Below are positions 95 to 29,009 of a stretch of DNA of 37,565 bases, one piece after another; the first letter of the stretch is position 1; the number at the start of each line of letters is the position of its first letter. The stretch is from Candidatus Woesearchaeota archaeon. Lineage in GTDB: Archaea; Nanobdellota; Nanobdellia; Woesearchaeales; JAGVYF01. Both the position numbers and the translations under genes were made by a program. A model generated the notes under the pieces. That model saw nothing but the letters and a program-made list of their open reading frames with translations, did not search any database and was not told the DNA's origin. Location of the stretch: contig JAGVYF010000012.1 in the NCBI GenBank assembly GCA_018303425.1, forward strand, positions 1 through 37,565. The letters run 5' to 3'.

Positions 95-154
95 GAACAA
101 TAAATTTTAGAACGTTAGGTTTATAAAGGGTTAATTTATTCTAAATCTAGTTCT

Positions 155-363
155 GTGGGGGTAGCAAAGTCTGGTCAAATGAAGCGAGGCTTCAAATGTC
201 AGAAACTACGTTTCAGACCAAATGCGCAGGACTTAAGCAGCTTATGGACACTGGGGTCTTAGGCCTTGGATATCCTGTCCTTTAGTAGGTTCAAGGGTTC
301 GAATAGACTTACTGGCGTTCGTAGATTTTGAATTCAGTGTCTTTGAAATTCCCTTCCCCCACA
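155..363 (+). tRNA. tRNA-Leu (anticodon UAA) with three introns
   Basis: The acceptor stem is GTGGGGG (155-161) paired with CCCCCAC (356-362), with discriminator A363. Removing three blocks leaves an 86-nt class II tRNA. The D stem is GCA/TGC with GG in the loop. The anticodon stem is CAGGA (227-231)/TCCTG (273-277) with loop CTTAAGA, anticodon TAA (234-236). The variable arm is 278-292 (CCT/AGG). The T arm is AAGGG (293-297), TTCGAAT, CCCTT (351-355). Intron 1 lies in the D loop, about 179-221 (43 nt; ends ambiguous inside a repeated CAAATG). Exon TGGTC (172-176) pairs with intron GACCA (216-220), leaving 3-nt bulges at both cuts. Intron 2 is at the canonical 37/38 site, 238-271 (34 nt). Intron 3 is in the T loop, 304-349 or 305-350 (46 nt), with exon TTCGA pairing to intron TTGAA. 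No CCA is encoded. The fold was done by eye. Confidence 0.85.
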
Positions 364-395
364 TTTACTTTTTTATTCAATATAGTAAATGGGTT

Positions 396-420
396 GCCTC
401 AGTGGCTTAGTGATATTGCG
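396..420 (+). pseudogene. Degenerate 5' half-copy of tRNA-Thr
   Basis: This stretch matches the first 25 nt of the intact tRNA-Thr gene at 488 with two or three substitutions, covering the acceptor 5' strand and the D arm. It then runs into an AT-rich perfect inverted repeat (TAAACTT at 421-427 with AAGTTTA) and never reaches a T arm or an acceptor 3' strand. It is a remnant or partial duplication. A split-tRNA 5' half is possible but unsupported. Confidence 0.6.
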
Positions 421-487
421 TAAACTTTTACAAAAAGTTTAATCAAAAGATGGCGAGCTATGCTCACCTAAAAAAAGAAATAAATCC

Positions 488-578
488 GCCTCAGTGGCTT
501 AGTGGTATAGCGCGGCCTTGGTATATTTAGAAATATCCAAATAGGCCGAGGTCGAGGGTTCAATTCCCTCCTGAGGCT
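488..578 (+). tRNA. tRNA-Thr (anticodon GGU) with one anticodon-loop intron
   Basis: The acceptor stem is GCCTCAG (488-494)/CTGAGGC (571-577), discriminator T578. The D arm is GCTTAGTGGTATAGC. The anticodon stem is CGGCC (513-517)/GGCCG (544-548), anticodon GGT at 520-522. A 19-nt intron at 524-542 sits at the canonical 37/38 position. Exon TTGG (518-521) pairs with intron CCAA (537-540), and the intron makes its own TATTT/AAATA hairpin, as expected for a bulge-helix-bulge. The T arm is GAGGG-TTCAATT-CCCTC. The mature length is 72 nt. The U discriminator fits archaeal tRNA-Thr. Confidence 0.9.
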
Positions 579-1468: not shown

Positions 1469-1507
1469 TTTTTTTATTTGTGCAACAAAATATAAGCGAG
1501 GTTGCCA

Positions 1508-2406
1508 ATGATAAAGAAAATGTATGTTAATAATAGCAATAAACTGAGTAAATCTGAAAGATTTACGATTATCCAATGCTGGAACAATGGATGGAAAACA
1601 ACCAGAATCGCTTTGCGATTCTCTGTTTCCAGAACTACAATCTACAAAATAATTAGTAGATACAAATCAGATGGAGTATTTGGCCTTCAAGACCACCTTC
1701 CGGGCAAATTGAGAATTCCATTAAATCCCAATTTCTATGCTAATGTGGTCAATATAAGAGAAAAAACCGGCTGGGGAGCTTGTAGAATCGAAAGATATTT
1801 CAAAATAAAAGGTTTTTCAGTAAGTCATAATAAGATTAATCAAGTTATCCAATACGAAAATCTAACTAGAAAAAAATGGGCAAAAAAAGGAAACCTAAAT
1901 ATGTAAGCTATGAGGCAGATAACATTAATGACCAGTGGCATATTGATTGGAGTATTGATCCAATGTCCAAGAAAAAGTTGCTTGCAATTATAGATGATAA
2001 ATCAAGATTTATCGTTTATGTAGGATTATTTGATGAAGCTACAGCAGAAAATTCTGCTGTAGGTTTGCAAAAAGCCATAAATACATATGGCGCGCCAAAG
2101 GAACTAATCAGCGATAATGGACTTCATTTCAAGAAATCACATAAAAATAAAGTACCCTGTGCACCATTAAAAATCGTCGAAGAAAAATATAGCGTAAAGC
2201 ACATTTTTATTCGTCCATATTATCCACAAAGTAACGGTAAAATAGAGAGATGGTTTGGGTCATATAAAGGTGAATTTCCATTAATGAATCATCCAGATGT
2301 TAAGGATTTGCACACTTGGACACACTATTATAATTTTGAGAGAATACATCAATCTCTCAATTATGAGACACCCGCACATATATATTTAGGTGTAAACTCA
2401 ATATAG
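1508..2406 (+). CDS. IS481-like transposase, probably made by -1 frameshifting
   Basis: The first frame (1508-1906) carries a helix-turn-helix region (around CWNNGWKTTRIALRFSVSRT) followed by a second DNA-binding stretch. The second frame (from 1876) carries the DDE integrase core: HIDWS (first Asp), LISDNGLHF (second Asp) and NGKIERWFG (Glu). The frames overlap by 31 nt and differ by -1. The overlap contains A7 runs, and 1882-1888 reads A AAA AAA G in the zero frame, a standard slippery heptamer. Slippage joins WAKK to RKPKYVS and gives a product of about 300 residues, the usual family length. The ATG at 1508 follows GAGG (1498-1501) and is preferred over TTG 1502. The second frame also has its own ATG at 1876, so a separate product is possible. 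Confidence 0.85.
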
Positions 2407-16189: not shown

Positions 16190-17032
16190 ATGGTCCAAAT
16201 TATTAAAAAAAATATGGATTCTGGTTCAAATGAACAAGGAAATTCTGCAGGGGTAAATGCATTACTTCGGGGCGGGTCGCCACAACAACATTTTTTAGGT
16301 TCATTATGGGATAATTTAAAGTCATTTAACCCCTTTAAAGAAAAATATGAGATTCTTAATGATAATTTTATTATTTATAATGGCAAAAAATTGTATCAGA
16401 TAAGGGCTCTTTATGATTTTTTATCTGTAAAAAAAGGGAATCTTGGAGGATATGTTGAATCGAAATTAAACCTTTCGAATAGTGGGACTTGCTGGATATA
16501 TGATAACGCAAAAATTATGGGTGGCGCACAGGCATTTGGCAATGCCCAAATCTTAGATAATGCTGTTGTTTTTGATGGAGCATCAATTTCAGACAATGCT
16601 AAAATTAGTGGTGAGGCATCTGTTTATGAGTTAGCTGTTGTTTATGGTAATTCAGAAGTGGCTGATAATGCTGAAGTTTATGGAAATGCTCATGTATATA
16701 AAGAAAGCAAAATTTTCGGGCATGCTAAAGTTTGGGGAAATGCGGAGATATATGGTGAGTTGCCTGAAGGTGTAAAAATACATGGTTTTGCTAGTGTATA
16801 TGGCGGGGCAAAGGTTTATGGCATGGCAAAAGTTTATGGAAAGGCCCTGGTTTATGGTTTTAAGGTTGAAATAATGGGCTTGGCAAAAGTTTATGGTGGT
16901 GCTGAAGTTTCCGGCAGAGCTTTGATATATGATGAAGCAGAAGTTTTTGGTTCTGCGCGTATTTTAGGCCATGCAAAAATTCATGGAAAAGTTAAAATCA
17001 ATAAAGGTAATGTTACTGAAGAGATTTATTGA
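16190..17032 (+). CDS. Beta-solenoid (hexapeptide-repeat-like) protein, 280 residues
   Basis: After a polar N-terminus (1-45) comes LYQIRALYDFLSVKKGNLGGYVES (about 66-90), then roughly 30 short repeats of the form x-A-x-V-Y-G-N/D (for example GNAQILDNAVVFDGASISDN). This is the left-handed or stacked beta-helix layout of YdcK-like and phage- or bacteria-associated polymer-forming proteins, and the leading RALxDF...KKGxLGGYVES block is a known prefix of that group. There is no signal peptide or membrane segment. Its function is unknown; possibilities include a structural scaffold. The bacterial or phage flavour suggests horizontal acquisition (inference). The 3' end overlaps the convergent 17013 gene by 20 nt. 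Confidence 0.8.
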   Translation: MVQIIKKNMDSGSNEQGNSAGVNALLRGGSPQQHFLGSLWDNLKSFNPFKEKYEILNDNFIIYNGKKLYQIRALYDFLSVKKGNLGGYVESKLNLSNSGTCWIYDNAKIMGGAQAFGNAQILDNAVVFDGASISDNAKISGEASVYELAVVYGNSEVADNAEVYGNAHVYKESKIFGHAKVWGNAEIYGELPEGVKIHGFASVYGGAKVYGMAKVYGKALVYGFKVEIMGLAKVYGGAEVSGRALIYDEAEVFGSARILGHAKIHGKVKINKGNVTEEIY

Positions 17033-19085
17033 TTAATTTTGCGTTCTTAACTTGGTAAATGCCGGTGCACTCGTTTTCCATAATTTTTTTAGCGTCATTA
17101 ATTTCTAGTTTTTTCGTGAAGTTTGGCCCGTCAATAACTAATGATTCAAATTCACCGCCTTCACCTGCAACATTTATCCCGGGTATTTTTGCTAAATGGT
17201 CTATGAATTCATTTGTTATTTCTCTACCCAAGTCTTCTTTAGTCAAACCTTCTGCAGCAATTGAGCCAATTATAACCTTAAATCCTTCATTTATCAGTTG
17301 TCTCATTTCAACTTCTTGATTCATATGCCATAATGGAGAAAAGCTCTTTAGGCCAATTTTATCGCAGATTTGTTCAATACGTTCTCTTTGGTAGTTTGAA
17401 AATAATGCCCCTGTTACAATACCTTCAATTTTATATCGTTTTTTAGCTTTATTTAATGCCTTTTCAAGATCTTTAAGTTCATTTTCTTTTTTGCCTTCTG
17501 TTTTTTGTTCTATAATCGGTATTTGAAGTGATTCGGATTGTAATTTTGCAAGATTTATGTTTGGCGTATGAAACATATATGATTCTTTATTGCTGCTTAT
17601 TATAGTAATCAGACATTCTATCTTATAATTTTGTTGCTGCATTACATATAAAGCATAGGCGCTATCTTTGCCTGAGCTGAATAATGCGCCTAATTTTAGA
17701 TTGTGTTTTGGATAGAACTTTCTTAAATATTCGGAAATATATTTTAATTTGGCCTGCTTTGTTAATTTTTTTAATGCTTTGTTCATGTTGCTTCCATACT
17801 GGGCAGCCCGTTTTTTTCTCATTGCATATTTTTCAGGCAGGCCCATTTTTAGCGCCGTTTCCCTTAGTATCAGTTTAGTAATCTCTCCTTTTATCTTATA
17901 TTTTGAAGGTATCCTTATAGCATATTTAACAAGTTCAAGATTAAGGAAAGGTATCCAATTTTCTAAAGTATTATACAGTGCAATTACATTGTCCCTGTAA
18001 AGATCTCTTTCATATATTTTAAGCAATCCTGATAAACATTCTTTGTTAATATCATTTGATTCTTTATGTCTTTGATATCCGGCAAATATTTCTTCTGAAC
18101 CTAAACCGCTGACAATAATATAACATTTATCTTTGCTTGCTTGTTTGCACGCTGAAAAAAAAGTCAATGCAACTCCAACTTTGGTTGTGTCTGTTGATTC
18201 TATAAGGGGCACTATTTCCTTTAAAAGTTTAGGAATTTTTGATGTTTTAATTTTTATTATTTTGTGATTTAAATTTAGTTCTTTTGCAAGCTCAACCGAA
18301 TACTTTAAATCTTCTGGCTCTTTGAGGTTTTTATCGTCTAACACTGTAGTGTAACATTTAAAATTCGCACCTGCCTTTTTTAGCATGAGCGCAAGTAAAC
18401 TTGAATCAATGCCTCCTGAGAGCAGCAGGCCAATTTTCCTTTTTTTGTCAAGTCTTTCAACGAACGCTTTTTCCAATAGGGGGATTAATTTTTGTATTAT
18501 TTTTTCTTTGGTATCTTTAATTTCAGGTTTTATATCTAAGAATAACCTTTTTTTGAACTTTACAATTTTAGTTTTATGGTTATAGATTAAAATCTGTCTT
18601 GGATTTAATTCTTCAATGTTAATATATCCTAATTTTTCTAATGCTTTTTTTTCAGAAGCAAATGCAAGACCATTATGCGTAGAATACCAGATTGGGAGTT
18701 CTCCAATTATGTCTCTTGCAAGGTATAATGTTGTGTTGTTTAAGTATGAAAAAGCATAAACTCCCTGAAACTCGTTTATTGCATTTATACCTTTTTTATC
18801 AAGTAAAATATGCATCATGTCTGAATCATTTCGGGGTTTTACATTATATTTTAGGGCTAGTTCTTTCCAGTTATACACTTCGCAATTTGCTGCAAATACT
18901 GAATTTTTTCTTATCAGCGGTTCTTTTACAAAACCAATCATTGCATATAAACAATGGCCGATTGCGTAGTCATCTTTATTGTAAACACCCCTGGCGTCTC
19001 GGCCTCTATACTCAATTAAGTCTAATCCCTGATTTGCGAGTTTTTTTGCTTCTTTATTTCCAAATATGCCAATGATTCCGCACAT
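17013..19085 (-). CDS. Fusion of glutamine-dependent asparagine synthetase (AsnB) and diphthamide synthetase (Dph6), 690 residues
   Basis: There are three parts. Residues 1-175 are a class II glutamine amidotransferase with nucleophile Cys2 (MCGIIGIFGN), RGRDARG at 27-33, an NCEVYNW version of the usual NGEIYN loop (67-73) and NDSD. Residues 195-440 are an asparagine-synthetase PP-loop domain with SGGIDSS at 223-229 and SGLGSEEIFAGY at 326-337. Residues 462-690 are a second PP-loop domain with SSGKDS at 470-475 and the Dph6 signature EGGEFESLVIDGP at 642-654, which belongs to diphthine-ammonia ligase, the last step of diphthamide synthesis on translation factor 2. Joining a glutaminase to Dph6 suggests glutamine-derived ammonia could feed diphthine amidation (inference); alternatively the AsnB half makes asparagine independently. 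The start is MCG at 19085. The frame is continuous, with no sign of assembly error. Confidence 0.9.
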   Translation of the reverse strand: MCGIIGIFGNKEAKKLANQGLDLIEYRGRDARGVYNKDDYAIGHCLYAMIGFVKEPLIRKNSVFAANCEVYNWKELALKYNVKPRNDSDMMHILLDKKGINAINEFQGVYAFSYLNNTTLYLARDIIGELPIWYSTHNGLAFASEKKALEKLGYINIEELNPRQILIYNHKTKIVKFKKRLFLDIKPEIKDTKEKIIQKLIPLLEKAFVERLDKKRKIGLLLSGGIDSSLLALMLKKAGANFKCYTTVLDDKNLKEPEDLKYSVELAKELNLNHKIIKIKTSKIPKLLKEIVPLIESTDTTKVGVALTFFSACKQASKDKCYIIVSGLGSEEIFAGYQRHKESNDINKECLSGLLKIYERDLYRDNVIALYNTLENWIPFLNLELVKYAIRIPSKYKIKGEITKLILRETALKMGLPEKYAMRKKRAAQYGSNMNKALKKLTKQAKLKYISEYLRKFYPKHNLKLGALFSSGKDSAYALYVMQQQNYKIECLITIISSNKESYMFHTPNINLAKLQSESLQIPIIEQKTEGKKENELKDLEKALNKAKKRYKIEGIVTGALFSNYQRERIEQICDKIGLKSFSPLWHMNQEVEMRQLINEGFKVIIGSIAAEGLTKEDLGREITNEFIDHLAKIPGINVAGEGGEFESLVIDGPNFTKKLEINDAKKIMENECTGIYQVKNAKLINKSLQ

Positions 19086-23173: not shown

Positions 23174-23878
23174 ATGGCCATGGTAAAAAAAAAGCTCCGT
23201 ATTGGTTTTTTTTCGTTTACTTGTTGTCAGGGCTGTCAATTTACCATTTTGTTCATTGACAAAATTCTGGATATATTACAACAGCTGGATGTGGGTTATT
23301 TCCATTTATTAAAAGATAAAGACAGAAGCAAAGAAGATTTTGATATTGCGTTTATTGAAGGGGCAATCACCACTAAACGAGAAGTTCGAAAGTTGAAGAA
23401 TATTAAAAACAAGTCTAAATTTGTTGTTGCAATTGGCGCCTGCGCAGTTAATGGCGGGATTCCATCAATGAGGAATTATATGGAAAATCGAGAACTTGAA
23501 AAATATGTATATAACCAAAAAATGCTGAAAGATTCAATTGAGGTTGAACCATTAGATTGTTTTATTAAGGTTGATTATCATATGAGGGGGTGTCCTATTA
23601 TTAAAGAGGAATTTGTTAGTTTTTTGGCGAATTATGCAAAAGGCAAGGTTATTACAGAGTTTAAAGGATCAGTATGTGACCAGTGTTCGAAAAGAGGTAA
23701 AGATTGTTACCTTGGAAAAAAAATAGTTTGCCTTGGAGCAATAACACATGGAGGATGTGACGCAATATGTACCAAAGATAATATTCCATGTATTATGTGC
23801 AGGGGGCCATTATCTTCCAGTAATTTTCCTGCGGAAGTAAGGCTATTCAAATCATGGGGTTTGAGTGATATGCAATAA
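23174..23878 (+). CDS. NiFe hydrogenase small subunit (group 3-like), 234 residues
   Basis: The iron-sulfur electron-transfer subunit. The proximal-cluster cysteines are in FTCCQGCQ (15-22), GACAVNGG (about 94-101) and RGCPI (about 138-142). A C-terminal region then carries eight or more cysteines (CDQCSKRGKDC, GGCDAIC, CIMC), enough for two further clusters, as in the small subunits of sulfhydrogenase or F420-non-reducing hydrogenase (MvhG-like). It has no Tat signal, so it is cytoplasmic. The usual partner subunits of group 3 enzymes (diaphorase or ferredoxin-like) are not in the window. An in-frame ATG at 23180 fits the promoter spacing better than 23174. Confidence 0.9.
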   Translation: MAMVKKKLRIGFFSFTCCQGCQFTILFIDKILDILQQLDVGYFHLLKDKDRSKEDFDIAFIEGAITTKREVRKLKNIKNKSKFVVAIGACAVNGGIPSMRNYMENRELEKYVYNQKMLKDSIEVEPLDCFIKVDYHMRGCPIIKEEFVSFLANYAKGKVITEFKGSVCDQCSKRGKDCYLGKKIVCLGAITHGGCDAICTKDNIPCIMCRGPLSSSNFPAEVRLFKSWGLSDMQ

Positions 23879-23879
23879 G

Positions 23880-23963
23880 ATGAGCAAGTTTGCCGATATT
23901 AGTTTAAAAGACCAGAAAGCGTGTGGGTTATTGGAAGATGGAATGCAAAAAAAATCAAAATAA
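23880..23963 (+). CDS. Possible 27-residue leader or remnant frame
   Basis: An ATG one base after the small-subunit stop opens MSKFADISLKDQKACGLLED and ends at 23963, overlapping the start of the cysteine-rich gene in another frame. The overlap runs through A-rich sequence (CAAAAAAAATC), so a frameshift into the next frame is conceivable. I see no homologue. It could be translational linkage or chance. Confidence 0.25.
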   Translation: MSKFADISLKDQKACGLLEDGMQKKSK

Positions 23964-24123
23964 AAAGAATTGTAACAGTCCATATGGTTTATGTTTAAAG
24001 AAAGGTTTATGTTGTGAACATATAATATATCATAGAAAGAATAAGGAATTATCTGTTAGTTATTTTCACTGTAATGTGGAAAAAACATATGATTATGGTA
24101 TTGAGAGGTTCAAAGTGTTATGA
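23938..24123 (+). CDS. Cysteine-rich DUF6485-like protein, 61 residues
   Basis: The pattern MEC...NC...YGLCLKKGLCCEHIIYHRKNKEL...YFHCNVEKTYDYGIERF matches the small DUF6485 family as I remember it, with conserved Cys residues plus the YHR and TYD...F blocks. It probably binds zinc or an iron-sulfur cluster (inference). ATG 23938 follows GGAAG, and a GTG at 23923 is a weaker alternative. The stop overlaps the hydrogenase large-subunit start as ATGA (24120-24123), so the two are translationally coupled, which suggests a role in hydrogenase assembly or electron transfer. Confidence 0.75.
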   Translation: MECKKNQNKKNCNSPYGLCLKKGLCCEHIIYHRKNKELSVSYFHCNVEKTYDYGIERFKVL

Positions 24124-25352
24124 AAACAATAAAACTCAATCAGGTAACAAAAATTGAAGGGCATGCTAAGCTGCATATCATAGTTGATAATGGCATAATT
24201 AAAAAAGCATCATTAAAAAAGTGGGATGATCTTCCTCATATCACTTCAAGGATTTGCGGTATTTGTTCGCCGGTGCATGCCATTACTTCAGTAAGGGCTG
24301 TTGAAGATGCTTTCAATGTTAAGGTCAGTAAACAGTCAAGACTCTTACGCGAGTTAGTATTAATTGGAGGAACTTTACAGAGCCACGTTTTACATTTATA
24401 TTTTCTTACATTGCCCGATTATATTGGATATAATAATGCTTTGGAAATGTTGCCTAAGTACAAACCTGAAATTGAAAGGGCGTTAAGGATTAAAAAAATG
24501 GGAAATATGCTAGTTGATTTTTTAGGGGGTAGGGACATACACCCCATTGCAGTTGTGCCCGGGGGATTGTCAAGGATTCCGGAACAAAAAGTTGTAAACG
24601 ATTTATTAAAACATTTAAATTTAATAAAGAAAGATGCAAAAGCAACAGTTGAATTGTTTACATCGTTAAAATATCCTGAGATGAGCCATAAGAAATTGTT
24701 AGCGGCCTTATCCGGTGGGCATTATTTTGATTCAAACAAAATTATCATGTGCGACGATAAGCAGTGTTACCCTAGCCGTGATTATGAACAACATTTTAAC
24801 GAATTTTTTCAAAAAGGGTCAACAGCTGAATTTGTGCAGATAGATGGCAAAAGTTATATGGTCGGCGCGCTTGCAAGGATGGTTAACAATTTTAATGCAT
24901 TGTCAGGGTTTTCACAAAAATTAGTTAAAAAACATTTAATTGATAAAACTTCTCCTTATATGAACAATGTTGCTCAGGCAATCGAAATATATGAAGGTAT
25001 TTTAAGATGCGTACATATACTTGAAAATCTGCAATTGAAAAATGAAAAGCTTAAGCCTATTAATGTAAGGCCGGCTGTTGGTATAGGCGCGGCTGAAGCG
25101 CCTAGGGGAATTTTGTTTCATAAATATAGTTTTGATAAAAAAGGTATTTGCGTTTCAGCTAACATTACAACTCCAACATCGCAAAACTTATTAAATATAC
25201 AGGAAGCGATTAAGCAAAGGTTGCCTGCGATACTTAAATATAGTGAAGAAGAGATTAAGCTTGAGATTGAAAAGCTAATTCGCGCTTATGATCCTTGTAT
25301 CAGCTGTTCTACCCATTTTTTGGAAATGAAACTGGAAAAAAATGATGAATAA
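24120..25352 (+). CDS. NiFe hydrogenase large subunit (group 3-like), 410 residues
   Basis: The catalytic subunit holding the Ni-Fe(CN)2CO centre. The L1 motif RICGICSPVH is at about 43-52 and the L2 motif DPCISCSTH near the C-terminus, giving all four Cys ligands. TKIEGH (about 10-15) retains the Glu of the proton path. An 11-residue C-terminal extension after the L2 His (FLEMKLEKNDE) is what a maturation endopeptidase would remove; such a protease is encoded at 27829-28146. Oddly, between the KIEGH strand and L1 the protein lacks about 15-20 residues that normally carry the pRgFE...lxGR block, so the N-terminus is shortened. It is coupled to the DUF6485-like gene by ATGA. Confidence 0.9.
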   Translation: MKTIKLNQVTKIEGHAKLHIIVDNGIIKKASLKKWDDLPHITSRICGICSPVHAITSVRAVEDAFNVKVSKQSRLLRELVLIGGTLQSHVLHLYFLTLPDYIGYNNALEMLPKYKPEIERALRIKKMGNMLVDFLGGRDIHPIAVVPGGLSRIPEQKVVNDLLKHLNLIKKDAKATVELFTSLKYPEMSHKKLLAALSGGHYFDSNKIIMCDDKQCYPSRDYEQHFNEFFQKGSTAEFVQIDGKSYMVGALARMVNNFNALSGFSQKLVKKHLIDKTSPYMNNVAQAIEIYEGILRCVHILENLQLKNEKLKPINVRPAVGIGAAEAPRGILFHKYSFDKKGICVSANITTPTSQNLLNIQEAIKQRLPAILKYSEEEIKLEIEKLIRAYDPCISCSTHFLEMKLEKNDE

Positions 25353-28688: not shown

Positions 28689-29009
28689 TTATTTTATCTT
28701 TACTTCTGTCAGGATAAGTTCATCGCCTTCTATAACTTTAGGTTTATTTTCACATCTTGGGCAAGTATAAAGTACATTTTCATGATTTTTTTCAATTATT
28801 TTGGGTTCACCTTCATAACCGCACCCGCATTTGATATTTGATGGTTTTATGGTGAAGTTTACTATCCAGCCCGTTAATTCCTCAATTCTGCCTTTTATAT
28901 CATGATCATGAAGGTCGCAAAGTTCACCCATTTCAATAGAAATTTCTTTAATTTCGCCATGTTTTTTTGCTTCTTCAATTATGCGCTGTACTGCGAATAA
29001 ATCATGCAT
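28689..29009 (-). CDS. hypA: Hydrogenase nickel incorporation protein HypA, 106 residues
   Basis: It delivers nickel to the large subunit. The N-terminal MHD and acidic segment (EISIEMGELCDL) give the nickel site (His2), and the zinc domain carries KCGCGYEG and YTCPRC (about 57-80). The C-terminus ends with GDELILTEV, as in archaeal HypA. The Cys pattern is CxC plus CxxC, slightly different from the usual two CxxC knuckles. It heads the minus-strand maturation operon. HypB, C, D, E and F are not in the window, so they must lie elsewhere. Confidence 0.9.
   Translation of the reverse strand: MHDLFAVQRIIEEAKKHGEIKEISIEMGELCDLHDHDIKGRIEELTGWIVNFTIKPSNIKCGCGYEGEPKIIEKNHENVLYTCPRCENKPKVIEGDELILTEVKIK

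What the first reader, a model, noticed from the sequence alone, without database searches (positions are those of the whole stretch)
155..363. tRNA-Leu(UAA) gene carrying three introns, in the D loop, anticodon loop and T loop
Removing 43, 34 and 46 nt leaves a textbook class II tRNA of 86 nt with every stem paired, GG in the D loop and TTCGAAT in the T loop. Each junction can be drawn with an exon-intron helix next to short bulges. Several introns in one tRNA at non-canonical positions are established in Thermoproteales; in a DPANN-like genome this would be unusual and would imply a splicing endonuclease with broad specificity.
Basis: partly seen in the sequence, partly recalled or inferred. 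Interest (0 to 1): 0.8.

Follow-up and report, generated by a model that had tools for sequence, protein, structure and literature searches.

The report
Transfer RNA gene with three introns
A leucine transfer-RNA gene of an uncultured Woesearchaeota archaeon really is interrupted by three short introns, and most transfer-RNA genes of this organism and of some relatives are cut up in the same way although the genome shows only the simple one-gene splicing enzyme, so the case tests the idea that such introns need a special enzyme.

Summary
Confirmed. Window 155-363 is the only tRNA-Leu(UAA) gene found in a 96%-complete Woesearchaeota genome; TTA is about half of the leucine codons tested. Introns lie in the D loop (43 nt, 179-221), anticodon loop (34 nt, 238-271) and T loop (46 nt, 304-349). 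Removing them leaves the 86-nt tRNA that relatives encode with 0, 1 or 2 introns. The D junction is a strict bulge-helix-bulge, the T junction near-strict, the anticodon junction relaxed. It is no lone oddity: I found 34 tRNA genes with 53 introns (about 1.6 per gene), 23 at T-loop position 59/60, and four triple-intron genes. In another family 15 detected genes hold 31 introns. One relative's tRNA-Leu(UAA) has four predicted introns; papers read give three as maximum. The genome has RtcB and one 176-aa EndA gene without the loop or second subunit tied to broad specificity, so splicing of relaxed sites is an open, testable point. Multi-intron tRNAs are known from Thermoproteales, Asgard archaea, N. 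equitans and ARMAN, so the kind is known. One intron family also has free-standing copies, some flanked by direct repeats, hinting at mobility. No RNA data.

The parts
120..127 (+). TTTATAAA, TATA-box-like, 28-35 nt before the gene
   Evidence: read in the sequence; not tested
155..178 (+). exon 1: acceptor 5' strand (155-161), T8 A9, D stem GCA (164-166), D loop to GGTCAA
   Evidence: uninterrupted and identical in relatives
179..221 (+). intron 1, 43 nt, D loop (21/22); strict bulge-helix-bulge GGTC AA^A TGAA...TTCA GACC AA^A TGC
   Evidence: homologous intronless genes; helix present in the fold of the unspliced RNA; related to the D intron of tRNA-Leu(UAG), z 7.9
222..237 (+). exon 2: end of D arm TGC (223-225), anticodon stem 5' strand CAGGA (227-231), loop CTTAAG (232-237), anticodon UAA 234-236
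238..271 (+). intron 2, 34 nt, canonical position 37/38; relaxed motif (central helix CTTA/TTGG, 3 of 4 pairs)
   Evidence: same site filled in most relatives
272..303 (+). exon 3: A38, anticodon stem 3' strand (273-277), variable arm (278-292), T stem 5' strand AAGGG (293-297), TTCGAA (298-303)
304..349 (+). intron 3, 46 nt, T loop position 59/60; central helix TTCG/TGAA 4 of 4, bulges AA^T and AT^T
350..363 (+). exon 4: T60, T stem 3' strand CCCTT (351-355), acceptor 3' strand CCCCCAC (356-362), discriminator A363
488..577 (+). neighbouring tRNA-Thr(GGU) with a 19-nt anticodon intron; the Leu-Thr order is conserved in G011 and G012
395..468 (+). 25-nt copy of the tRNA-Thr 5' end (395-419) followed by a hairpin element (about 420-468) resembling the dispersed intron family
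   Evidence: family membership rests on shared motif and shape, not on a significant profile hit

Best explanation
The locus is the functional tRNA-Leu(UAA) gene of a Woesearchaeota archaeon. The precursor folds so that exon and intron form bulge-helix-bulge or near-bulge-helix-bulge motifs at three places (21/22, 37/38, 59/60). The archaeal splicing endonuclease EndA, here most likely an alpha homotetramer from one gene, cuts both bulges of each motif, and RtcB joins the exons, giving an 86-nt tRNA. Shown by computation: exons, junctions, pairing, single copy, genome-wide pattern, presence of EndA and RtcB. Inferred: transcription, cleavage, ligation, the alpha4 assembly, and that EndA accepts the relaxed junctions.
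For: Uninterrupted or singly interrupted homologues with the same exons across the order. Junction pairing far above shuffles. Spontaneous fold of the precursor. ARAGORN recognises 31 of 31 spliced genes with the expected isotype but 8 of 31 unspliced, two of those mis-typed. My intron-aware finder separates genes from shuffled genomes: strict version, genes >=19.3 against shuffle maximum 14.2; looser version, shuffle maximum 18.2 against 19.8 for this gene. TTA is 325 of 662 Leu codons in 13 window ORFs and no second tRNA-Leu(UAA) was found. EndA. RtcB. TATA-like box upstream.
Against: No RNA evidence. The anticodon junction is imperfect (3 of 4 pairs, U-U mismatch) and many other junctions in the genome are relaxed, which alpha4 enzymes are reported not to cut (PMC4033280, PMC6379350). 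The genome is a 96%-complete draft, so an uninterrupted copy or a second EndA subunit could lie in the missing part, although nearly every relative also has just one PF01974 gene. tRNA-Trp and some other isoacceptors were not found in this genome.
Confidence: 0.9

Rival explanations
1. The gene is a decayed tRNA (pseudogene) broken by insertions, and UUA is read by another tRNA.
For: Degenerate fragments of the neighbouring tRNA-Thr lie nearby, so tRNA decay does occur here.
Against: Exons are undamaged and match relatives; junctions obey the splicing motif; no other UAA-anticodon gene was found while UUA is the commonest Leu codon tested; 30 of the 34 tRNA genes found are interrupted and would have to be pseudogenes too.
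Confidence: 0.03
2. The three segments are introns, but spliced with the help of an unrecognised broad-specificity activity (a divergent second EndA subunit or another RNA-processing enzyme) rather than by the single alpha EndA alone.
For: Relaxed junctions exist, and relaxed motifs are reported to need (alpha-beta)2 or epsilon2 enzymes (PMC6379350).
Against: Only one PF01974 and one PF02778 gene in the genome and one PF01974 gene in nearly all relatives; the N. equitans second subunit is similar enough to be detected (3iey_B, E 1.9e-12).
Confidence: 0.15
3. The inserts are group I or other self-splicing introns, or artefacts of assembly.
For: Group I introns are common in DPANN rRNA genes (PMC6125680).
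Against: Inserts of 34-46 nt are far too short for a ribozyme; no Rfam group I or II match; the same positions are filled with different sequences in other genomes, which an assembly error would not give.
Confidence: 0.01

Closest known systems
Multiple-intron tRNA genes of Thermoproteales (Pyrobaculum; Sugahara 2008, Fujishima 2010, as cited in PMC4090602, PMC4033280, PMC8450103)
   Same: Up to three bulge-helix-bulge introns per tRNA, canonical plus non-canonical positions including 59/60, similar intron sequences shared by different tRNAs
   Different: Crenarchaea have an (alpha-beta)2 EndA with a specific loop; here a single alpha-type EndA, about two thirds of genes with the T-loop 59/60 intron, and a relative with four introns
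Asgard Atabeyarchaeia and Freyarchaeia tRNA genes (PMC11291895)
   Same: 92-95% of tRNA genes with introns, over half with several, often non-canonical; similar load
   Different: Unrelated lineage; EndA type not compared here
Nanoarchaeum equitans and ARMAN tRNA genes (PMC4033280)
   Same: DPANN lineages with non-canonical or multiple tRNA introns
   Different: N. equitans has (alpha-beta)2 and ARMAN epsilon2 EndA; the nanoarchaeon Nst1, with alpha4, is said to be limited to canonical introns

Membership tests
Archaeal bulge-helix-bulge tRNA intron | removal restores a standard tRNA | tested here: met
Archaeal bulge-helix-bulge tRNA intron | 4-bp exon-intron helix with 3-nt bulges at the splice sites (strict, or the described relaxed forms) | tested here: met
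   D junction strict; T junction 4/4 helix with a small offset in the intron helix; anticodon junction relaxed, 3/4
Archaeal bulge-helix-bulge tRNA intron | excision by EndA and ligation by RtcB | not testable with these tools
   both genes present; no RNA or enzyme data
Multiple-intron tRNA with broad-specificity EndA (Thermoproteales, N. equitans, ARMAN type) | two or three introns in one tRNA, canonical and non-canonical | tested here: met
   three here; 19 genes with two or more in the genome
Multiple-intron tRNA with broad-specificity EndA (Thermoproteales, N. equitans, ARMAN type) | (alpha-beta)2 or epsilon2 EndA, with a specificity loop | tested here: not met
   one 176-aa gene with both domains; gap of about 10 residues where A. 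pernix alpha has the crenarchaeal loop; no second subunit found. The ARMAN loop was not tested directly
Split (trans-spliced) tRNA | halves at separate loci | tested here: not met
   all exons of this tRNA lie in order within 209 nt
Group I intron | ribozyme core of 200 nt or more | tested here: not met
   34-46 nt inserts; no Rfam match

The most novel reading that the evidence does not exclude
In Woesearchaeota a single-gene alpha-type EndA without the known specificity loops removes relaxed introns at D-, anticodon- and T-loop sites, allowing up to four introns per tRNA. In this genome the intron load is fed by a small mobile structured repeat that also stands free beside tRNA genes and in the start of a tRNase-Z-like gene, flanked by 17-30-nt direct repeats. 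Because the T-loop word TTCGAA is its own complement, a target duplication there would by itself supply the TTCG/CGAA splicing helix, which would explain why 59/60 is the favoured site.
Probability: 0.25. Interest if true: 0.85.

Novelty: new variant of a known kind. Interest (0 to 1): 0.6.

Why it matters
If the single alpha EndA does the work, the accepted link between enzyme type and tRNA intron diversity needs revision. Standard tRNA finders miss most tRNA genes of such genomes (10 found by ARAGORN against at least 34), so DPANN genomes may be wrongly scored as lacking tRNAs. The free-standing relatives of the introns give a concrete handle on how tRNA introns arise.

Tried and rejected
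ARAGORN with introns allowed and Rfam miss this gene. ARAGORN mis-typed two unspliced genes, calling tRNA-His Tyr and initiator Met Ser. A first generic D-loop motif search gave off-by-one junctions for Leu(UAA) because its range excluded the last loop base; the spliced D loop printed prefers the same one-base-shorter junction, whereas the junction given here was read by hand, agrees and restores the homologues' length. An automatic spliced alignment merged two introns of G006 into one; it was re-read with the motif rule and with the parallel intron of G063. A targeted search for tRNA-Trp and rarer isoacceptors in G000 found nothing credible. A regex for the GGC-stem-ACC motif of the repeat was unspecific. 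An EndA alignment from unoriented loci failed and was redone with oriented ones. Literature searches naming Woesearchaeota, Woesearchaeales, Pacearchaeota, Micrarchaeota or DPANN found no description of Woesearchaeota tRNA introns, but only open-access papers are searchable.

Full report
WHAT IS THERE. Window 155-363 reads as a class II tRNA once three segments are removed: 179-221 (43 nt), 238-271 (34 nt) and 304-349 (46 nt). The mature form is GTGGGGGTAGCAAAGTCTGGTCAAATGCGCAGGACTTAAGATCCTGTCCTTTAGTAGGTTCAAGGGTTCGAATCCCTTCCCCCACA, 86 nt, anticodon UAA. The unspliced gene is invisible to ARAGORN and Rfam; a spliced version is called tRNA-Leu.

HOMOLOGY TEST OF THE JUNCTIONS. The exons were found in relatives of the same order. 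The first 40 nt of the mature tRNA, which span the D intron here, are contiguous and identical in G014 and G071. I parsed 97 tRNA-Leu loci, mostly UAA, a few of them repeated fetches of one locus, with a spliced alignment: 24 without intron, 54 with the anticodon intron only, 5 with D plus anticodon, 4 with anticodon plus T loop, 4 scored as D plus anticodon plus T, and a few other combinations. The introns recur at the same positions with different sequences, as real introns do.

SPLICING MOTIFS. At the canonical site the rule is: positions 32-35 pair with the four intron bases that precede the last two. At 59/60 the equivalent is TTCR with the same four bases. The rule was applied to junctions placed from tRNA structure alone. 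Across the genome 3.57 of 4 pairs form for 23 anticodon introns and 3.73 of 4 for 22 T-loop introns; shuffled introns give about 1.7, with maxima of 2.4 and 2.5 in 2000 rounds. For this gene the D motif is strict (GGTC/GACC, two AAA bulges, then TGAA/TTCA), the T motif has a 4/4 helix and 3-nt bulges, and the anticodon motif is relaxed (3/4). The minimum-energy fold of the unspliced RNA shows the D and T motifs unprompted.

GENOME-WIDE PICTURE. I assembled all 39 contigs from fetched stretches and wrote an intron-aware tRNA finder. With additions (Thr(UGU) and Cys from ARAGORN; Gly(GCC) and Gly(CCC) by eye) there are 34 genes and 53 introns: 24 anticodon, 23 T-loop, 6 D-loop; 30 of 34 genes are interrupted. 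The tally, 33 genes and 52 introns, lacks Gly(CCC). Triple-intron genes: Leu(UAA), Leu(UAG), Lys(UUU), Arg(UCG). All 31 scripted genes are recognised by ARAGORN after splicing, 8 before. G012, of another family, gave 15 genes and 31 introns with five triple-intron genes in 535 kb. Genes the finder misses are not counted, so both densities hold for the detected sets only. For comparison Pyrobaculum calidifontis has 71 introns in 46 genes and Thermoproteales average 0.84 per gene (PMC8450103); Asgard Atabeyarchaeia and Freyarchaeia have 92-95% interrupted genes (PMC11291895). So the load is extreme but not unique. In 60 relatives the number of tRNAs that Rfam can see ranges from 5 to 42, so the load varies widely in the order.

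FOUR INTRONS IN A RELATIVE. G006:C7 (locus L135) tRNA-Leu(UAA) is best read with four introns: 49 nt at 21/22, 41 nt at 30/31 (CGCA GG^A CTC...GAG TGCG AA^A, a strict motif), 22 nt at 37/38 and 31 nt at 59/60. The spliced product is a perfect 86-nt tRNA. G063 (L229) independently has a 30/31 intron with the same motif. Papers I could read give three as the maximum.

ENZYMES. The genome has one EndA gene (C3:26100-26630, 176 aa, both domains). It is closest in solved structures to N. equitans NEQ205 and M. jannaschii EndA and lacks the loop of about 10 residues of A. pernix alpha that is tied to broad specificity. The matched relatives are of the same size and come from MAGs named Woesearchaeota, Nanoarchaeota or Nanoarchaeia, which also places the organism. 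RtcB is present. Reviews state that alpha4 enzymes cut only canonical motifs (PMC6379350, PMC4033280). Many junctions here deviate from strict, so either this EndA is broader than the rule or the fold of the full precursor helps; this is inference.

INTRON FAMILIES AND POSSIBLE MOBILITY. Twelve intron pairs are clearly related (z > 6). The T-loop intron of tRNA-Leu(UAG) matches the anticodon intron of tRNA-His (z 27), so introns have moved between genes and positions, as described for Thermoproteales. A 90-nt T-loop family (Gly, Ser(GCU), Ile(UAU), Ala(GGC)) shares its first 32-60 nt with five free-standing copies in the genome. Four of six free-standing sites tested, counting window 395-487, have flanking direct repeats above background; two do not. 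A pattern for the core finds the free copies in this genome and one in G042, right at the 3' end of a tRNA-Leu, and none in 97 other relatives. This suggests a young mobile repeat but its mechanism is unknown; the target-duplication idea is a hypothesis.

VERDICT. New here, as far as the searchable literature shows, are the lineage, the dominance of the T-loop site together with a plain alpha-type EndA, the four-intron relative, and the free-standing kin of the introns.

Noticed in passing
window 395-419 and 588-610: Degenerate copies of the 5' end (25 nt) and of the 3' end (about 24 nt) of tRNA-Thr(GGU) flank the intact gene at 488-577.
   Followed up: partly
G000 C3:25850-25940 (minus strand): Free-standing member of the intron-like repeat in the start of a tRNase-Z-like gene (MELTFLGTSSMVPT..., named by eye), flanked by a perfect 30-nt direct repeat that includes the start codon.
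   Followed up: partly
L349 (G042:C47:16790-16825): The same repeat core begins directly after the 3' end of a tRNA-Leu gene in a different family of the order.
   Followed up: partly
L135 (G006:C7): tRNA-Leu(UAA) with four predicted introns, more than the maximum of three given in the papers read.
   Followed up: yes
G000 C6:7588-7787 (minus strand): tRNA-Ile with anticodon UAU, two introns, beside two separate CAU (Met) tRNAs.
   Followed up: no
window 17013-19085: ORF that looks like an asparagine-synthase-type protein fused to a diphthine-ammonia-ligase-like domain (read by eye from the translation).
   Followed up: no
window 23174-25352 and 28689-29009: Genes that look like NiFe hydrogenase small and large subunits and HypA (by eye from the translation) in a small DPANN genome.
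   Followed up: no
window 1502-2406: Two overlapping ORFs that look like an insertion-sequence transposase (helix-turn-helix plus integrase core) split by a frameshift (by eye).
   Followed up: no
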